Under the pieces are notes generated by a model. The model was not told the origin of the DNA and searched no databases. It worked only from the letters and a program-made list of their open reading frames with translations. This document shows, piece by piece, positions 1 through 64,000 of a stretch of 64,000 nucleotides of DNA. Within the stretch, counting starts at the first letter, position 1. Every line of letters starts with the position of its first letter. The position numbers were made by a program, and so were the translations under genes. Source of the DNA: Halomonas getboli (GTDB lineage Bacteria > Pseudomonadota > Gammaproteobacteria > Pseudomonadales > Halomonadaceae); contig NZ_JALMEW010000002.1 of assembly GCF_023094245.1 (NCBI RefSeq), forward strand, positions 1 through 64,000. Direction: 5' to 3'.

Positions 1-126
1 TGTAGCTCGGCGCTTGTAGCTCGGCGCTTGTAGCTCGGCGCTTGTAGCTCGGCGCTTGTAGCTCGGCGCTTGTAGCTCGGCGCTTGTAGCTCGGCGCTTG
101 TAGCTCGGCGCTTGTAGCTCGGCGCT
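1..126. repeat. Tandem repeat, nine perfect copies of a 14-bp unit
   Basis: Nine uninterrupted identical copies of TGTAGCTCGGCGCT fill the first 126 bases, and the array may extend beyond the window start. The unit is two heptads (GGCGCTT and GTAGCTC when re-phased), so it belongs to the same 7-bp-periodic family seen at 63550-63591. It lies 17 nt downstream of the dcd stop codon. There are no spacers, so it is not a CRISPR array. The perfect identity of copies suggests recent slippage expansion. Confidence 0.97.
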
Positions 127-143
127 TTCCGTCTAACCGGTGC

Positions 144-4606: not shown

Positions 4607-4716
4607 CAGCGCGCCCCTGATACAGCGCACCGGACACCGCGCTCCTCACTACAGCGCGCCGAGCACCGCGCCCTAGTACAGCGCCTCTTACGCAGCAGCC
4701 CAAACGCAGCGCGCCC
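4607..4716. repeat. Degenerate array of about 14-bp repeats (GCGC-centred)
   Basis: Between the PLD gene and hupE the core CAGCGC/CCGCGC recurs with its G at about 4609, 4625, 4639, 4654, 4668, 4681, 4695 and 4709, giving spacings of 16, 14, 15, 14, 13, 14 and 14 nt. Read on the minus strand the unit resembles GCGCGCTGTANNNGG. It looks like a decayed version of the 14-bp arrays elsewhere in the window. No open frame is supported here. Confidence 0.65.
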
Positions 4717-4755: not shown

Positions 4756-5349
4756 TCAGCCGACGGCGAACAGCGCGCCCATGGCGGCGATGGCCGCGCC
4801 CAGGCCACGCAGCACCCGCTGCTCGCGGGTCATCAGCCAGCCGGCGATGCGGCGGCCGGCAACGGTCAGGGCCAGGGTCGCCAGGCTGAAGCCGGCCAGG
4901 TACAGCAGGGTGCTGGCCCCGTGAGGCATCTCGGCGGCGTGGGCATGGCCGTGGAAGACCATGAAGGCGACCACGGCGACGCTGCCCAGCGCCGCGGGCA
5001 CCCGGGCCAGGGCCGCGACCAGCACGCCGGCCAGCAGCACGCTCATGGCGATGCCGAACTCCACGCCCGGCAGCGCCACGCCGGCCCAGGCCAGGCCGGC
5101 GCCGAGCAGCATGCCGCCCACCGCCAGCAGCGGCACGACGCGGCCCATCGCGGCCGACTGACGCATGCTGAACAGGCCGATGGCCAGCATCGCCAGCAGA
5201 TGGTCGAGGCCGAACAGCGGGTGGCCGAGGCCCGCCACAAAGCCACCGCCGGCGACTCCGTGGCCGGGATGGGCCCAGGCGCTGCCGGCCACCAGCATCA
5301 GGGCGGCGGCGCCCAGGGCGCGCGAGTGAAAGAGGGAAGACAATGTCAT
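4756..5349 (-). CDS. ureJ: HupE/UreJ-family nickel permease, urease-linked
   Basis: A 197-aa inner-membrane protein with a cleavable-looking signal segment ending SAWA and then the metal-binding HPGHG. The family motif HPLFGLDHLLAML follows near residues 43-55, and a second His cluster (FHGHAHAAE) appears near residue 133. HupE/UreJ proteins are secondary transporters that bring in nickel for hydrogenases or ureases. Position as last gene of the urease operon, 32 nt after ureG, supports nickel supply to urease. It has a GGAG ribosome site. The symbol hupE would serve equally well. Confidence 0.88.
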   Translation of the reverse strand: MTLSSLFHSRALGAAALMLVAGSAWAHPGHGVAGGGFVAGLGHPLFGLDHLLAMLAIGLFSMRQSAAMGRVVPLLAVGGMLLGAGLAWAGVALPGVEFGIAMSVLLAGVLVAALARVPAALGSVAVVAFMVFHGHAHAAEMPHGASTLLYLAGFSLATLALTVAGRRIAGWLMTREQRVLRGLGAAIAAMGALFAVG

Positions 5350-5381
5350 GGCGATCTCCTTGCCGTGATGAGTAGAGGGAT

Positions 5382-6017
5382 TCAGTCGGCGCCGGCGTGC
5401 TGGGGCCGGCGCTCCGGCAGCATGCCGCGGTCGAGGATGAAGGCGATGATCTCCTCGAGGCCGACCCCGTCGTGCAGGTTGGTGAACACGAAGGGCCGCT
5501 CGCCGCGCATCATCTTCGAGTCGCGCTCCATCACCGCGAGCGAGGCGTGGACCTGCTCGGCGATGTCGATCTTGTTGATGATCAAGAGATCCGACTTGGT
5601 GATGCCCGGCCCACCCTTGCGCGGGATCTTGTCGCCGGCAGAGACATCGATCACGTAGAGCGTGAGGTCCGAGAGCTCGGGGCTGAAGGTCGCCGAGAGG
5701 TTGTCGCCGCCGGACTCGACCAGCACCAGCTCGAGCCTGGGGTGGCGCGCCTGGAGGTCGTCGATGGCGGCGAGGTTCATCGAGGCGTCCTCGCGGATGG
5801 CGGTATGCGGGCAGCCGCCGGTCTCGACGCCGAGGATGCGATCCGCCGGCAGCGCCTCGTGGCGGGTCAGGAAGTCGGCATCCTCGCGGGTGTAGATATC
5901 ATTGGTGACCACGGCGATATCGTAGTGATCGCGCAGGGCCCGGCACAGCTGCTTGAGCAGCGCCGTCTTGCCGGAGCCCACCGGGCCGCCGACGCCGATA
6001 CGCAGGCAATGGGTCAT
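5382..6017 (-). CDS. ureG: Urease accessory GTPase UreG
   Basis: SIMIBI-class GTPase that delivers nickel to the urease apoprotein in complex with UreD, UreF and UreE. The P-loop GPVGSGKT lies at residues 10-17, the metal-binding CPH in [12 protein letters not shown] near residue 70, and [11 protein letters not shown] near residue 102. The G4-type NKID follows at about residue 153. The ATG at 6017 starts the conserved MTHCLRIG and has GGAG upstream; the frame back to 6062 is an unneeded extension. The length of 211 aa is normal. It follows ureF by 44 nt. Confidence 0.96.
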
Positions 6018-6061
6018 CTCGTTGTCTCCTCGTCGGGATTCGGGTTCTTTTCTTCGTTGCA

Positions 6062-6745
6062 CTAGCTGCGGAACAGGCGCGAGTACTGGGTCTCATGCTG
6101 GGCGCTGGCCAGGGCCAGGCCGGGCAGCATCGGCCCGAGTTCGTCGTCGTCGCATTCGAGAGCCGCGTCCGTCGCCGCCACCAGCGCCGGACGCAGGCGC
6201 TCGATCAGCCGCTGGGCGGCGGTGTGGCCGAGCGGCAGCGCCTTGCAGGCCACGGCGAGCTGGTTCTCGAGCCAGGCCCAGGCAAAGCCGAGCAGCGCCT
6301 GACGCGGCGTCACGCCCCGGGCCAGCGCCAGCCAGGCGAAGACGCCGACATAGCCCATGCCGTTGAGGCGCGACGGCTCGGGCGGCGTCAGCCCGAGGCT
6401 CGTGACCAGCCGCGTCAGGGCACTGCCGAGGCGCGCCTCCTCGGCGGCCAGTTCGGCGGTCTCGCGGGTGGCGGCGAGCCAGCCGTTCCAGTGCTCGAGC
6501 GCCTCGACGTCGTCCTCGGCCCAGGCCGCCATGAAGCGCGCCAGGGCCGGCAGCTCGCAGCGCGCGAGGCCGTCGTCGAGCACGCCTTCCAGCCACTCGC
6601 CGAGATCGTCCTCGCCGCGCACCCAGTCGAGTTCGAAGGCGCTTTCCAGGCCCTGGGACCAGGCGAAGGCGCCGATCGGCAGCGCCGGGCTGACCAGCTG
6701 CATCAGCCCCAGCAGCGCCAGATCGTCGCTCGACTCAGTGGGCAT
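6062..6745 (-). CDS. ureF: Urease accessory protein UreF
   Basis: All-alpha accessory protein that joins UreD and UreG in the nickel-insertion complex. The hallmark [18 protein letters not shown] begins near residue 16, and the conserved SRLNGMG-type region is central. The start lies inside the end of ureE (11-bp overlap from the ATG at 6745; a second in-frame ATG at 6751 would give a 17-bp overlap), implying translational coupling. Length is 227 aa. The longer open frame upstream is the shadow of ureE. Confidence 0.93.
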
Positions 6746-7250
6746 GGTCATGCCCATGGTGGTGGCCGTGATGATGGTGATGGCCGCCCTCCCCGGCGCG
6801 GGCATAGGCGCCGGGCTCGGGATCGAAGGGCGCGGCGTGGTGCTCGAGCCGCGCGCCCAGGCGCTCGGCCAGCGCTTCCAGCACGTGATCCGGCGGGAAG
6901 CGCACCCAGCCCAGACCGGTAGAGTCCGCATCGGCGTCGGCGCCGATGGCGAGCTGCACGTGGCGGTTGCCCAGGTGATAGCTCAACCGCGCCAGCGGCA
7001 GGCCGGCCTCGAGGCGCGCGGTGACCACCGGCTCCACGGCGGCCTGGACGCGGATCGTCTGGCCGTCCTCGCCGCTCAGCCCGTCGCCGTGGCGCAGCAC
7101 CGGCCCGCGGTCGAGGAAGATCCCGACCTCCCGGCCGGCGTCGGAGACGGCCTTGAAGCGCCCGCGGGTGCGGGTCGCGTAGTCGAGGGTCAGGGTATCG
7201 ACGGCGGCGCTCGCCGCGACCGGCCCCAGGCGTTGGTTCAGTGTCCACAT
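6735..7250 (-). CDS. ureE: Urease nickel metallochaperone UreE
   Basis: Homodimeric nickel chaperone that hands Ni to UreG. The 171-aa protein has the usual peptide-binding N-terminal domain, then a metal-binding domain with YHLGNRHVQL near residue 93. It ends in a His-rich tail in which 11 of the last 16 residues are His. Such tails bind several nickel ions and act as a store. It overlaps ureF and lies downstream of the heptad-repeat gap after ureC. Confidence 0.95.
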   Translation of the reverse strand: MWTLNQRLGPVAASAAVDTLTLDYATRTRGRFKAVSDAGREVGIFLDRGPVLRHGDGLSGEDGQTIRVQAAVEPVVTARLEAGLPLARLSYHLGNRHVQLAIGADADADSTGLGWVRFPPDHVLEALAERLGARLEHHAAPFDPEPGAYARAGEGGHHHHHGHHHGHDHAH

Positions 7251-7271
7251 GACGATGTCCTTGGTTGTCGG

Positions 7272-7378
7272 TGTAAGGAGTGAGGTGTAAGGAGCGAGGT
7301 GTTCTCCTCACTCCTCACCCCTTGCCCCTTGCCCCTTGCCCCTTGCCCCTCACTCATTGCCCCTCACTCCTCACCGCT
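7272..7378. repeat. Heptad-repeat island between ureC and ureE
   Basis: Two 14-bp purine-rich units TGTAAGGAGYGAGG (7272-7299) are followed by pyrimidine heptads from about 7302: CACTCCT, CACCCCT, four TGCCCCT, CACTCAT, TGCCCCT, CACTCCT, all in one 7-nt register to 7378. The purine half (GGAGTGAGG) is complementary to the pyrimidine half (CCTCACTCC), so the operon transcript could form a stem here. No open frame is supported. Confidence 0.9.
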
Positions 7379-7382
7379 CCGC

Positions 7383-9112
<1,730 letters not shown>

Positions 9113-9116
<4 letters not shown>

Positions 9117-9511
9117 GACGACTCTCCTTGATCGGCATCGCGGGATGACGGGGTTCGCGCGTCGTCGGGCGCGGTAGAGGCATTACGCTCGGCTTCGGGA
9201 GCGATGGAGAGCTCACCCATGACGTCGCCGCGAAAACCGTAGATGCGCCGATGGCCGACGAACGGGATCAGCGTCACCTCCCGGGACTGGCCGGGCTCGA
9301 AGCGGATCGCCGTGCCCGCGGCCACGTCCAGGCGCCGTCCGCGCGCCCGGTCGCGATCGAAGACCAGCGCCGGGTTGGCCTCGGCGAAGTGATAGTGGGA
9401 ACCGATCTGCACCGGGCGGTCGCCGGTATTGGCCACCTCGAGGGTGATCCGTTCACGCCCCTCGCAGAGCGCGATCTCACCGTCCTGAAGCCGATACTCA
9501 CCGGGAATCAT
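9113..9511 (-). CDS. ureB: Urease beta subunit
   Basis: Small structural subunit of the urease heterotrimer. The start MIPGEYRL at 9511 is the family's conserved N-terminus; the frame to 9577 is an artefact of the repeat region. Conserved IQIGSHYHF-like segment ([13 protein letters not shown]) and [11 protein letters not shown] are present. At 132 aa it has a longer acidic and Ser-rich C-terminal tail than the roughly 105-aa enterobacterial subunit. It overlaps ureC by 4 nt. The gap before it, after ureA, carries an inverted heptad island. Confidence 0.96.
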
Positions 9512-9540
9512 GTCGTGGCTCCTTTCAGTCGCCGTGAGGG

Positions 9541-9606
9541 GGCGAGGGGTAAGGAGTAAGGAGATCTGGCTTCTCACGCCTCACTCCTCACCTCCCACAC
9601 CTCACA
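9541..9606. repeat. Inverted heptad-repeat island between ureA and ureB
   Basis: Purine heptads GGCGAGG, GGTAAGG, AGTAAGG (9541-9561) face pyrimidine heptads CCTCACT, CCTCACC, TCCCACA, CCTCACA (9579-9606) across a short unrelated centre. The two arms are largely complementary, so a hairpin can form in the operon transcript. The island overlaps the stop codon of ureA at 9602-9604. Confidence 0.82.
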
Positions 9607-9904
9607 CAATGGGATGATGGATGGTGACAAGCTTGGTCCCGTCGGGGAACGTCGCCTCCACCTGCACCTCGTCGACCATCTCGGCCACGCCCTCCATGAC
9701 GTCGTCGCGGCCGAGGATCTCGCGGCCCGCGCCCATCAGCTCGGCGACGCTCCGGCCGTCGCGGGCGCCCTCCATGATCTCGCAGCTGATCAGCGCCACG
9801 GCCTCCGGATAGTTGAGCTTCAGGCCGCGGTCGCGGCGCCGCTCGGCCAGCAGGCCGGCGGTGAACAGCAGCAGCTTGTCCTTGTCTCTCGGGGTCAGTT
9901 CCAT
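9602..9904 (-). CDS. ureA: Urease gamma subunit
   Basis: The 100-aa gamma subunit, exactly the family length. It starts [17 protein letters not shown] and contains the conserved [10 protein letters not shown] and [20 protein letters not shown] segments. It packs with UreB and UreC in the cytosolic enzyme. The ATG at 9904 is preferred over the upstream ATG at 9919 by alignment to the family start. It is second in the operon after ureD, following a 94-nt-plus gap containing an imperfect inverted heptad repeat. Confidence 0.97.
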
Positions 9905-9983
9905 CGAGATAGCTCCCAAAGCATGTCGTTTACCTTCAGTGTTCAGACTCCCGCCTGCCAGCTGGCAGAGCGGCGCTTCGCGC

Positions 9984-10057
9984 CTGGAAGCGAGAAGCCG
10001 GAAGACCCCCGATATCTGAAGGCAGGAGACTTCAAGCTTCCCGCTTCGAGCTTCCAG
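9984..10057. repeat. Inverted heptad-repeat island between ureD and ureA
   Basis: GAAG recurs at 9987, 9994 and 10001, exactly 7 bp apart. On the other side GCT recurs at 10036, 10043, 10050 and 10057, again 7 bp apart. The arm 9984-10004 pairs with 10037-10057 at 18 of 21 positions, giving a long imperfect hairpin with a roughly 32-nt loop. It fills much of the 160-nt gap inside the operon. Confidence 0.82.
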
Positions 10058-10064
10058 CTCCTCG

Positions 10065-10970
10065 TCAGGTCAGCCAGATGCGCGGCTCACAGGCCGGCCG
10101 CCCCGCCAGCCGCGGGCGCAGCACTTCCCAGGCCCGCCGGCACAGCGACCAGGCGACGTTGCGTTCATTGCCCAGGTAGCGCAGCAGCAGCACACCCTGG
10201 CGCACGGTCACCGCCCATTCCCGACTCGCCGGCAGCGCCTCGCGCAGCGCGTCGATCGCGCCAGCCTCGTCGTCGAGGCCCACCGCCCACAGCGTCGCCT
10301 GGACGCCGGCGCCGCCCTGCCCCCAGGCGCCGCGGAAACGGCGATGGGTCGGATCCAGCACCTGGCGCTCCAGCCACAGCGGGCACCCCTCGCGGGTCAG
10401 GCGAAAGCGCTGCTCGATGGCGCCGGAGACGTAGGGCAGCTCGCTCGCCGGCCGCCCCAGCGCCAGCACCTCCCAGCCCAGGCAGCGCGCCCCGGCGGCC
10501 AGCTCGATGTCGGTCACCTGGCGGCCCTTCGAGCCATCGAAGGCGATGGTCTCCTGGGGCAGCCACTCCAGCAGCGCGTCCTCGGCCACGCCGAGCCGGG
10601 TGTGCTGATGCCAGCGCACGCCCTGGCTGTCGGCACGATAGAGCTTGTTGGCCGCCGGCGTGGTGAGCAGCGCCTGGGCTCCGGGCGCAAGTCGGGCCTC
10701 GATGGCGAGCTCGTCGCCGCTGACCAGCCCGCCGGGCGGATGCAGCAGATAGACGTGGCAGGCGCCGGGGCGGCCCGCCTCGTCGGGGGCCTCCGGATAG
10801 AAGGGACGCTGCACGCGCAGCGGGCCCTGATGGCGGGCCTTGAGCATGCGGGTATGGCCATCGTCGCGGGCATCGAAGGCCAGCGACAGCGACGCCGCCC
10901 AGCGTCGCTCGCCGTCGAAGCGGTGGCCCGACTCGGCGGGCGACGGGAGGGCACGCGGAATGGCGGTCAT
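10065..10970 (-). CDS. ureD: Urease accessory protein UreD
   Basis: Scaffold accessory protein that binds apo-urease and recruits UreF and UreG during nickel insertion. The 301-aa protein contains family segments such as [25 protein letters not shown] and the central [14 protein letters not shown]. The ATG at 10970 has AGGA before it; the frame back to 11027 runs into the promoter. It is the first gene of the ureDABCEFG-ureJ operon, whose sigma-54 promoter lies 40-56 nt upstream. Confidence 0.94.
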
Positions 10971-44394: not shown

Positions 44395-44462
44395 AGGAGT
44401 CAGCAGGAAGGAGTGGGGAGCCAGGAGGGCACCATGGATGACGCGGCTCTTGGCTCCCCGCC
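44395..44462. repeat. Heptad-like purine run with inverted partner after the dioxygenase gene
   Basis: AGGAGTC, AGCAGGA, AGGAGTG, GGGAGCC, AGGAGGG follow each other in a 7-nt register from about 44396. GGGGAGCCAGGAG is repeated in inverted form as CTCTTGGCTCCCC near 44451-44463 with one mismatch. The element resembles the islands in the urease operon and precedes a true terminator. Confidence 0.55.
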
Positions 44463-62041: not shown

Positions 62042-63493
62042 TCAGGCCTCCTGCTGCTGGGTGGCATCGTTGGCGGCAAGCCCGCGAACGTCGACGAAAT
62101 GACCGGCGATGGCGGCGGCGGCGGCCATCGCCGGACTGACCAGGTGGGTGCGCCCGCCGTAGCCCTGGCGACCCTCGAAGTTGCGGTTGGAGGTCGAGGC
62201 GCAGTGCTCGCCGGCGCCGAGCTTGTCGGCGTTCATCGCCAGGCACATGGAGCAGCCCGGCTCGCGCCACTCGAAGCCCGCCTCGCGGAAGATCGCGTCG
62301 AGCCCTTCCGCCTCGGCCTGCTGCTTCACCAGGCCGGACCCCGGTACCACCATGGCCAGCTTGATGGAATCGGCGACCTTCTTGCCGCGCGCCACCTTGG
62401 CGGCCTCGCGCAGGTCCTCGATGCGGGAGTTGGTGCAGGAGCCGATGAACACCTTGTCCAGGCGGATGTCGGTGATCTTCTGCTTCGGCGCCAGCCCCAT
62501 GTACTCGAGTGCGCGGCTGATGCCGGTGCGCGCGGTGTCATCGGCCGCCTCGGCCGGGTCCGGCACTTCGCCGCCGATGCCGGTGACCATCTCGGGGCTG
62601 GTGCCCCAGCTCACCTGCGGCTCGATGTCCGCGGCGTCGAGGGTCACCACCTTGTCGAAGGCGGCGCCTTCGTCGGAGACCAGATCGCGCCAGTCGGCCA
62701 CCGCGGCCTCCCACTGCTCGACGCTGGGCGCGTAATGACGGCCCTTGAGGTAATCGATGGTGGTGTCGTCCACGGCGATCAGGCCGACCCGAGCGCCCGC
62801 CTCGATGGCCATGTTGCAGACCGTCATGCGGCCTTCCATGGACAGCTCGCGGATGGCGCTGCCGGCGAACTCGATGGCATAGCCAGTGCCGCCGGCGGTG
62901 CCGATCTCGCCGATGATGGCCAGCACGATATCCTTGGCGGTGACGCCGACGCCGAGCTCGCCTTCCACGCGCACCTGCATGTTCTTCATCTTCTGCGCCA
63001 GCAGACACTGGGTGGCCAGCACGTGCTCGACCTCGGAGGTGCCGATGCCGTGGGCCAGCGCGGCGAAGGCGCCGTGGGTCGCGGTGTGGGAGTCGCCGCA
63101 GACCACGGTCATGCCGGGCAGGGTCGCGCCCTGCTCCGGGCCGACCACGTGCACGATGCCCTGGCGCGGGTCGTTGATGCGGAACTCCTCGATGCCGAAC
63201 TCGTTGCAGTTGTCATCGAGGGTCTGGACCTGGATCAGCGACACCGGGTCCTTGATGCCGGCATTGCCCTCGGCCCGCTCCTTGAGGGTGGTCGGCACGT
63301 TGTGGTCCGGCGTCGCCAGGTTGGCGTCGATCCGCCACGGGCGGCGATTCGCCAGGCGCAGGCCCTCGAAGGCCTGGGGCGAGGTCACTTCGTGGAGCAG
63401 CTGGCGATCGATGTAGATCAGCGCGGTGCCGTCGTCGCGTTCCTTCACCAGGTGCTGCGACCACAGCTTGTCGTAGAGGGTCTGGCCTGCCAT
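62042..63493 (-). CDS. leuC: 3-Isopropylmalate dehydratase large subunit
   Basis: Large subunit with the [4Fe-4S] cluster, 483 aa. The cluster Cys residues are in GSCTNSR (near 350) and CSMC (near 411), and [29 protein letters not shown] near residue 127 is typical. The ATG at 63493 starts [11 protein letters not shown]; the frame further upstream runs through a tandem repeat. It is first of leuCDB and divergent from a LysR-type gene. Confidence 0.97.
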
Positions 63494-63549
63494 CTCGTTC
63501 TCCCGGGCGCTGGGCCCTGTGCGTGTCCGGTCGGTCTTCTCGTCTTTTT

Positions 63550-63591
63550 GGCGCTTGGCGCTTGGCGCTTGGCGCTTGGCGCTTGGCGCTT
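63550..63591. repeat. Tandem heptamer, six perfect copies of GGCGCTT
   Basis: Six perfect copies of GGCGCTT fill 63550-63591, between the leuC start and the divergent LysR gene. The unit is half of the 14-bp unit at 1-126. It lies 57-98 nt upstream of the leuC start, so it is within the probable leuC leader or promoter. Confidence 0.97.
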
Positions 63592-63647
63592 TTGCAGGAG
63601 TGTCCCGCGACGCGCACATAAAAGCAATTCATGTTATTTATTCAAAG

Positions 63648-63688: not shown

Positions 63689-64000
63689 ATGGACACTCAG
63701 AGCCTGCAGGCCTTCCTCGCCGTGGCCGACGGCGGCAGCTTCTCCCGCGCCGGCGAGCAGCTGCACCTGACCCAGCCGGCGGTCAGCAAGCGCATCGCCG
63801 TGCTCGAGGATCAGGTCGGGGCGCGGCTGTTCGACCGCATCGGCCGCCGGGTGACGCTGACCGAGGCCGGCCGGCTGCTGCTGCCCCGCGCCCGACAGAT
63901 CCTGGTGATGGTGGACGACAGCCGCCGCGCGCTGGGCAACCTGAGCGGACAGGTGGCCGGCAGCCTGACCCTGTCCACCAGCCATCATATCGGCCTGCAC
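63689..64000 (+). CDS. LysR-family transcriptional regulator (cut by window end)
   Basis: The first 104 residues are present. They contain the complete LysR winged helix-turn-helix: LQAFLAVADGGSFSRAGEQLHLTQPAVSKRI, then LEDQVGARLFDRIGRRVTLTEAG, then the linker helix and the first strand of the effector domain (GSLTLSTSHHIG). A GGGAG site precedes the ATG. Divergence from leuCDB suggests control of leucine synthesis, as for similarly placed regulators in pseudomonads. The rest of the gene lies beyond the window. Confidence 0.9.
   Translation, partial: MDTQSLQAFLAVADGGSFSRAGEQLHLTQPAVSKRIAVLEDQVGARLFDRIGRRVTLTEAGRLLLPRARQILVMVDDSRRALGNLSGQVAGSLTLSTSHHIGLH

What the first reader, a model, noticed from the sequence alone, without database searches (positions are those of the whole stretch)
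63550..63591. Same heptad in front of leuC: a genome family of 7-bp-periodic repeats
Six perfect GGCGCTT units here equal one half of the 14-bp unit 63 kb away (GGCGCTT plus GTAGCTC). Together with the islands at 4607-4716, 7272-7378, 9541-9606, 9984-10057 and about 44395-44440, the window has at least seven intergenic islands with 7 or 14-bp periodicity but different sequences. Conserved period with unconserved sequence suggests a common generating process (a slippage or templating enzyme) rather than a copied element. Cyanobacterial short tandem heptanucleotide repeats are a possible parallel.
Basis: partly seen in the sequence, partly recalled or inferred. Interest (0 to 1): 0.72.

Follow-up and report, generated by a model that had tools for sequence, protein, structure and literature searches.

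The report
Halomonas seven-base repeats beside genes
A salt-loving bacterium carries many short stretches in which a seven-letter DNA word is repeated, in the part looked at all between genes and mostly right behind a gene's stop signal; comparing relatives at one site suggests that such a stretch grew on the spot from a single word, which gives a natural system for asking why bacteria favour repeats of seven.

Summary
(TTGGCGC)6.3 lies at 63548-63591 between divergent leuC and a lysR-type gene. In 864 kb of this genome (24%), exact tandem runs of at least 14 matched bases number 21 at lag 7, all noncoding by my gene calls, 4 at lag 14 and 0-2 at each other lag from 2 to 30. Resampled intergenic DNA gave none at lag 7 in 20 tries.

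Rotated and strand-chosen, most units fit RAGSNNY, and the RAG strand is usually the coding strand of the gene whose stop codon is near (19 of 24 arrays nearest a gene 3' end; 16 of 17 within 20 bp).

At leuC, relatives carry 1 to 13 heptads at one place with several unit variants, one octamer array, or none. I read this as growth in place from a single-copy seed by slippage. A templating reverse transcriptase is unlikely: no RVT_1 match in this genome.

The anatomy matches the published GGGNATC heptads of Xanthomonas (PMC4692102), but only 2 of 28 arrays meet a three-layer quadruplex rule. A new variant of a known kind; why seven stays open.

The parts
63548..63591 (-). Heptad array of the finding: on the leuC sense strand (AAGCGCC)x6 (63550-63591), just downstream of a conserved promoter-like block
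63599..63637 (-). Block upstream of leuC (ATAACATGAATTGCTTTTATG...GACACT); its first 21 bases are matched without mismatch, one free position aside, in all 30 genus loci read. I read TTGCTT - 17 nt - GACACT as -35/-10 by eye; the promoter scan found no consensus site
   Evidence: one search found 0 sites
62042..63493 (-). leuC, 3-isopropylmalate dehydratase large subunit
   Evidence: TIGR00170 763 bits (cut-off 560)
63689..64000 (+). LysR-family regulator (continues beyond the window to C18:64585 by my gene call)
   Evidence: none of the 25 rows shown reaches its cut-off
1..127 (-). 14-bp array (AAGCGCC GAGCTAC)n at a contig end, on the 3' side of dcd (dCTP deaminase, 144-710, -), sense to it
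7262..7382 (-). Inverted heptad island (RAGGNGY arm, loop, RCNCCTY arm) behind the ureC stop; 7262-7390 folds as a hairpin, z = -3.8
9512..9601 (-). Inverted heptad island between ureA and ureB; hairpin z = -4.2 for 9505-9612
9984..10059 (-). Weaker island between ureD and ureA (CTTCAAG/CTTCCAG units at 10030-10059; lag 7 = 0.57); not folded

Best explanation
The arrays are short tandem repeats born in place. A single heptad seed is duplicated and then expanded, contracted and homogenised by replication slippage with a step that in this Halomonas is almost always 7 bp. They survive, and perhaps arise preferentially, where a transcript is free of ribosomes: mostly in the first bases after a stop codon, less often in a 5' leader such as that of leuC, with the purine-rich RAG strand as the RNA-sense strand. 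Behind several genes the sense array is followed by a reverse-oriented array, which gives a long hairpin in the mRNA. Shown here: the 7-specific excess, intergenic location, orientation, differing arrays at orthologous sites, and conserved positions within the unit. Inferred: growth in place (from the species comparison), the slippage step, the role of ribosome-free RNA, and any effect on transcripts. Not explained: why seven.
For: Lag-7 excess: 21 runs, all noncoding, in 864 kb. leuC leader in the 30 best-scoring of 89 matching genus genomes (of 90): 7 heptad arrays (AAGCGCC x6 here, x5 in G048, x13 in G072; 11 AAGCGCA followed by 2 AAGCGCC in G077; (CAGCGCC) x8 in G051; AAGCGCC followed by GAGGGCC/AAGGGCC in G023 and G089), 6 classed as single heptad-like, 17 classed none, of which one (G015) holds an octamer array. 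In both mixed arrays the first unit is still AAGCGCC. ureC 3' gap in 6 relatives with a match: GAGCTAC and GAAGCCC-type heptads in G072, GAGCGCC CAGCGCC CAGCGCC in G051, a dispersed element in G077 and G055, no array in G061 and G022. C18:336852 gap in 7 relatives: (AAGGGCC)x6 behind the same stop in G051, the 14-mer on the other strand in G077, no period 6-8 run in G048, G055, G061, G072, G022. Orientation: 19 of 24 arrays nearest a gene 3' end are sense (p = 0.007), 16 of 17 within 20 bp (one contig-edge array, also sense, left out); in convergent gaps all 14 are sense to the nearest gene. Convergent gaps hold 14 of 27 arrays but 15% of intergenic length. In nine other genomes of the class, 17 of 21 arrays have only a sense stop at their head, 1 has stops on both sides, 0 antisense only, 3 neither. 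Adjacent-unit mismatches by position R,A,G,S,N,N,Y are 47,5,2,6,61,31,20 of 184.
Against: Pure neutral slippage predicts mismatches spread evenly over the unit; they are not, although I chose the phase by the consensus, which inflates this. Identical units recur at unlinked loci (GAGGTGC as a main unit in 4 of 28 arrays; the 14-mer at 13 places), so some copying or convergence must be added. Two 3' arrays are plain exceptions in orientation (C18:357128, C11:326448). The consensus also occurs antisense behind stops (15 of 434 regions against 37 sense) and upstream of genes (13 sense, 8 antisense of 494). The close relative G061 shows no lag-7 run of at least 14 in 200 kb. Expansion at leuC could in part be contraction of older arrays; no tree was built. 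No population data, reads or growth experiment show slippage directly.
Confidence: 0.6

Rival explanations
1. The arrays are functional 3'-end (and leader) RNA elements: sense (RAGGNGY)n plus a downstream (RCNCCTY)m arm fold into hairpins that end transcription or protect mRNA, and selection on the RNA keeps the consensus.
For: Eight inverted islands folded as RNA scored z from -1.8 to -5.6 against 100 shuffles each (islands picked by hand). Two gaps of the urease operon in the window carry such islands and a third a weaker one. AAGC-type arrays run into terminator-like stems. Conserved A, G, S positions.
Against: Unit variation in the two arms looks independent in the pairs that I read. The inverted islands that I read lack a T-tract (by eye). 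Orthologous gaps in relatives can lack the island altogether. The leuC leader fold is unremarkable, z = -1.05.
Confidence: 0.2
2. A dispersed mobile family: arrays are copied from site to site and then diverge.
For: The 14-mer AAGCGCCGAGCTAC is at 13 places, five of them read and found next to similar terminator-like stems; the same unit and stem stand in G077 at a gap where this genome has another array; GAGGTGC arrays recur at unlinked loci.
Against: Flanks of most arrays that I read look unrelated (by eye). The leuC array keeps one site with 1 to 13 units and changing units across species. A Y1_Tnp (RAYT-type) match is absent from array-bearing G017, G018, G021, G022 and G023.
Confidence: 0.12
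3. Three-frame stop ladder: a heptad holding TGA or TAA gives stops in all frames within 21 nt, so arrays are kept behind genes as a back-up stop.
For: Outside Halomonas the listed units are mostly TRAGGNG and the ORF often ends in the first, second or third unit. Here 17 of 37 post-stop hits start in the stop codon itself.
Against: Only 7 of 28 arrays in this genome hold stops in all three sense frames, and 3 of 28 in all antisense frames; many units have C in place of T.
Confidence: 0.05
4. G-quadruplex elements, as proposed for the GGGNATC heptads of Xanthomonas and Nostoc.
For: Same period, intergenic placement, coding-strand preference behind stop codons, and inverted pairs (PMC4692102, read). 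A looser two-G rule is met on the sense strand by 20 of 28 arrays.
Against: Only 2 of 28 arrays meet a four-G3-tract rule on either strand; 7 of 28 meet not even the two-G rule.
Confidence: 0.03

Closest known systems
GGGNATC / GGGGA(C/T)T heptameric repeats of Xanthomonas and Nostoc (Rehm et al. 2015, PMC4692102; abstract, introduction, first third of the results, section on intergenic repeats and discussion read)
   Different: Unit RAGSNNY instead of GGGNATC; mostly no G3 tracts; growth in place can be followed at leuC; in the sample 14 of 27 arrays lie between convergent genes, against 16% in Xanthomonas
TAACTGA direct repeats of marine Beggiatoaceae (PMC4679880; abstract and outline read)
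   Same: Intergenic heptamer direct repeats, dispersed in one genome, patchy phylogeny
   Different: One fixed heptamer, mostly just upstream of start codons; here many units, mostly behind stop codons
Heptanucleotide promoter repeats of Haemophilus influenzae hmw1A (PMC8262952; seen in search listing only, promoter role recalled)
   Same: A heptamer array near a gene's promoter whose number varies
   Different: leuC is a housekeeping gene; no phase variation tested here
Cyanobacterial short tandemly repeated repetitive (STRR) sequences (recalled; term in search listing, Calothrix heptamers mentioned in PMC4692102)
   Same: Heptanucleotide tandem repeats in intergenic DNA
   Different: Other units and another phylum; not compared at sequence level here

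Membership tests
Intergenic heptameric simple sequence repeats of bacteria (general kind) | Tandem period 7 well above other periods | tested here: met
   (24% of the genome)
Intergenic heptameric simple sequence repeats of bacteria (general kind) | Intergenic location | tested here: met
   21 of 21 lag-7 runs and 28 of 28 consensus arrays noncoding by my own simple gene calls
Intergenic heptameric simple sequence repeats of bacteria (general kind) | Copy number varies between relatives | tested here: met
Xanthomonas/Nostoc GGGNATC quadruplex repeats | Unit GGGNATC or GGGGAYT | tested here: not met
   units mostly RAGSNNY
Xanthomonas/Nostoc GGGNATC quadruplex repeats | Four G3 tracts able to form a G-quadruplex | tested here: not met
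   2 of 28 arrays
Xanthomonas/Nostoc GGGNATC quadruplex repeats | Close behind stop codons on the coding strand, with inverted partners further away | tested here: met
   two exceptions
Contingency locus (phase variation by slippage in a promoter) | Reversible change of repeat number within a clone altering expression | not testable with these tools
   only between-species variation seen
REP/RAYT or MITE elements | Conserved element ends or a cognate Y1 transposase in array-bearing genomes | tested here: not met
   flanks mostly differ (by eye; the 14-mer subset with its stem is an exception); own genome has 2 Y1_Tnp matches but G017, G018, G021, G022, G023 have none
Reverse-transcriptase-templated repeats | A reverse transcriptase in array-bearing genomes | tested here: not met
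   0 RVT_1 matches in G000, G013, G018, G022; other RT families not tested

The most novel reading that the evidence does not exclude
A bacterial mutational process with a preferred step of 7 nt acts on DNA whose transcript is free of ribosomes (just behind stop codons and at the very start of leaders), reads the purine-rich sense strand, and independently creates arrays with different units in Halomonas, Xanthomonas, Nostoc and scattered other lineages; transcription, for example through R-loops, sets both place and orientation.
Probability: 0.2. Interest if true: 0.85.

Novelty: new variant of a known kind. Interest (0 to 1): 0.57.

Why it matters
Heptamers have been reported as over-represented among bacterial repeats, and the one proposed reason that I read is the size of the DNA polymerase contact (cited in PMC4692102). 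Here is a genus with a traceable site (leuC) where seed, growth, unit replacement and one switch to eight bases can be lined up across species, and with arrays that share the Xanthomonas anatomy but mostly fail the three-layer quadruplex rule. That separates 'why seven, and why behind stop codons' from the quadruplex idea and makes it testable in a culturable genus.

Tried and rejected
Reverse-transcriptase templating: PF00078 over 38 genomes, 19 with a match, none in the own genome. RAYT mobility: PF01797 over the same 38 genomes, 24 with a match, 2 matches in the own genome, none in several array-bearing ones. Quadruplexes: 2 of 28 arrays. Arm-to-arm covariation: the arms look independent in the inverted pairs that I read; not counted formally. 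Three-frame stops: 7 of 28. Promoter consensus at leuC: none found. Rfam for the roughly 110-bp element in leuC leaders: no match in 4 loci. The ortholog reading had faulty anchors (several loci in the other orientation, and no own anchor for the ureC gap); it was redone, and this report uses. For ureC, G048 gave only a weak match and was not read. The built-in reversed-pattern controls are weak, because units such as GAGCTTC or GAGGAGT also fit the reversed pattern: several genomes (G018, G021 among them) have as many control hits as hits, and two genomes have control hits only. One search took 31 pairs off the mismatch counts for the two alternating 14-mer arrays; the arrays listed give 28.

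Full report
WHAT IS THERE. Positions 63548-63591 read (TTGGCGC)6.3 without a mismatch. On the other strand this is (AAGCGCC)n, the sense strand of leuC (62042-63493, minus; TIGR00170). A LysR-family gene runs the other way from 63689. The pattern (GGCGCTT)x3 occurs only here in the own genome. The window is the first 64 kb of contig C18 of a 3.66-Mb, 99.85% complete assembly. Its closest leuC relatives in the named collection are Halomonas cerina and H. ventosae at 93% protein identity (that list may leave out the genome itself), so I take it for a Halomonas.

IS PERIOD 7 SPECIAL? Yes, in the 24% looked at. In 464 kb of C18, exact runs of at least 14 matched bases number 13 at lag 7, 4 at lag 14, and 0 or 1 at every other lag from 2 to 30. 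In 400 kb of C11 the numbers are 8 at lag 7, 2 at lag 28, and 0 or 1 elsewhere. All 21 lag-7 runs are noncoding by my own simple gene caller. In 487 intergenic regions the lag-7 count of runs of at least 10 is 26, against 0 in all of 20 Markov resamplings. With a looser island score, multiples of three rise because of coding periodicity, and lag 7 stands out only among the other lags (21, 22 and 8 islands in C18, C11 and G023 against 1 to 10 for lags 5, 8, 10, 11 and 13; three of the C11 islands are runs of N).

THE SEQUENCES ARE RELATED. After the C18 units suggested RAGSNNC, the C11 sample served as a fresh test: of 10 lag-7 units listed there (runs of at least 12), 8 fit RAGSNNC and 10 fit RAGSNNY under some rotation and strand (fitted by eye; a random heptad has 14 chances to fit, so single fits mean little). 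Of the 13 C18 runs, 10 fit RAGSNNY (by eye); the misses are AGCCCGA and CCGAAGT at C18:234653 and TCTCCTC at C18:357135. Scanning for at least four such units gives 28 arrays, all noncoding, against 2 in the reversed sequence. Two kinds appear: RAGGNGY and RAGCNNC. Neighbouring units differ at positions R, N, N, Y and hardly at A, G, S: 47, 5, 2, 6, 61, 31, 20 of 184 comparisons in C18, C11 and G023. Some 28 pairs come from two alternating 14-mer arrays, which differ at R, N and N; without them the skew remains. The caveat is that I chose the phase by the consensus.

WHERE THEY SIT. Of 27 arrays with both neighbours, 14 lie between convergent genes, 11 between tandem and 2 between divergent genes, while convergent gaps make up 15.0 of 101.8 kb of intergenic length (binomial p = 7e-6). 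Arms of one gap were counted apart; by distinct gaps it is 12 convergent, 8 tandem, 2 divergent (my recount). Of 24 arrays nearest a gene's 3' end, 19 have the RAG strand as the coding strand; within 20 bp it is 16 of 17. Six of the 27 are not sense to the nearest gene: three are plainly the far arm of an inverted pair, a fourth (C11:221686) follows a sense stretch right behind the stop codon, and two (C18:357128, C11:326448) are exceptions. In 434 regions behind stop codons, 37 hold a sense [AGT]AGSNNYRAGS, 17 of them starting inside the stop codon itself (T|GAGGTGC..., TAGCTGC AAGCTGC...), and 15 an antisense one; upstream of genes it is 13 sense and 8 antisense of 494. The leuC array belongs to the minority in 5' leaders. 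By eye it begins about where transcription would start, but the scan found no consensus promoter.

GROWTH IN PLACE AT leuC. Of 90 genus genomes 89 matched; the 30 best loci were read on both strands. All 30 keep ATAACATGAATTGNTTTTATG. Behind it, 7 have heptad arrays: AAGCGCC x6 (own), x5 (G048), x13 (G072); 11 AAGCGCA followed by two AAGCGCC (G077); CAGCGCC x8 (G051); AAGCGCC then GAGGGCC and AAGGGCC (G023, G089). Six were classed by a simple pattern as holding one heptad-like copy, and 17 as none; one of these 17 (G015) in fact holds a 12-copy octamer array of AAGCGGCC. The simplest account is a single-copy seed AAAAGCGCC that was amplified several times, with new variants spreading through the array; contraction of older arrays is not excluded. 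The 30 loci are the best by score, not a random draw. Among the other loci, Halomonas sp. ML-15 has a degenerate copy and H. ventosae none.

OTHER SITES AGREE. Behind ureC, six relatives with a match were read: G072 and G051 have different heptads, G077 and G055 an unrelated dispersed element, G061 and G022 no array. In the gap that holds the 24-unit array C18:336852, seven relatives were read: G051 has (AAGGGCC)x6 right behind the stop, G077 has the 14-mer behind a terminator-like stem for the gene on the other strand, and five have no run of period 6 to 8. The 14-mer AAGCGCCGAGCTAC is at 13 places here; in the five cases read (C18:116948, C18:130823 and C11:263673; the C3 and C11 contig ends) it stands next to a stem such as CCCCGAAGG...CCTTCGGGG. 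For this subset copying is likely.

HOW WIDE. (RAGSNNC)x4 has matches in 19 of 25 genus genomes (own included) and 2 of 13 from other families of the order. (RAGGNGY)x5 has matches in 11 of 369 gammaproteobacterial genomes drawn across the class: this one, one of another genus of the family, and nine from six other families. The reversed-pattern controls are not independent, as told under Tried and rejected. From nine of the eleven genomes (not the own one and not G439) I took 20 stretches, chosen by me from the listed hits, holding 21 arrays: 17 have a sense stop codon of a long ORF at their head and no antisense one, 1 has both, 3 have neither. Lag-7 runs of at least 14 in further stretches: G186 6 (and 7 octamer runs) in 100 kb, G436 6 in 99 kb, G430 2 in 40 kb, G142 none in 100 kb, G343 none in 60 kb.

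HOW IT MIGHT WORK. Steps shown: period, place, orientation, motif, and differing arrays at orthologous sites. Steps inferred: growth in place from a seed, slippage as the mechanism, preference for ribosome-free transcribed DNA, any effect on RNA. The inverted islands do fold strongly (eight islands, z -1.8 to -5.6), so a role at mRNA 3' ends is a serious rival or addition. A reverse transcriptase of the RVT_1 family is not needed, nor a Y1 transposase. Why seven rather than eight or nine is unexplained; PMC4692102 cites a hypothesis about the polymerase contact size.

KNOWN OR NEW. Rehm et al. (PMC4692102; abstract, introduction, first third of the results, the section on intergenic repeats and the discussion read) describe the same anatomy for GGGNATC heptads, and report that heptamers were already found over-represented in many bacteria. 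I found no paper on such arrays in Halomonas: 0 papers; 1 paper, without Halomonas; 15 of 3,061 listed, none on this by title; a Halomonas salifodinae genome paper that mentions tandem repeats was not read. That is absence from one open-access library only.

Noticed in passing
window 1-127: The window starts inside a 14-bp array at a contig end; contigs C3, C11, C18 and C22 all end in the same array, 124-127 bp long in the three that I measured, which looks like an assembler overlap and suggests that the true arrays are longer.
   Followed up: partly
window 4756-10970: Urease operon (ureD, ureA, ureB, ureC, ureF, ureG, ureJ, minus strand) with heptad islands in three of its gaps.
   Followed up: partly
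L198, L199, L204, L209, L212, L214 (leuC leaders); L308, L313 (behind ureC): A dispersed imperfect palindrome of roughly 110 bp (GGCGCCGGGG.CAG ... CAGCGCCTCC ... CCGG) sits in the leuC leader of several relatives and behind ureC in G077 and G055; no Rfam match in four loci.
   Followed up: partly
L205 (G015), leuC leader: An octamer array (AAGCGGCC)x12 at the site where relatives have heptamers: the core is kept while the period changes.
   Followed up: no
L275-L279 (G186): A distant gammaproteobacterium with as many octamer as heptamer runs (7 and 6 in 100 kb) and further heptad units such as ACGGAAC.
   Followed up: no
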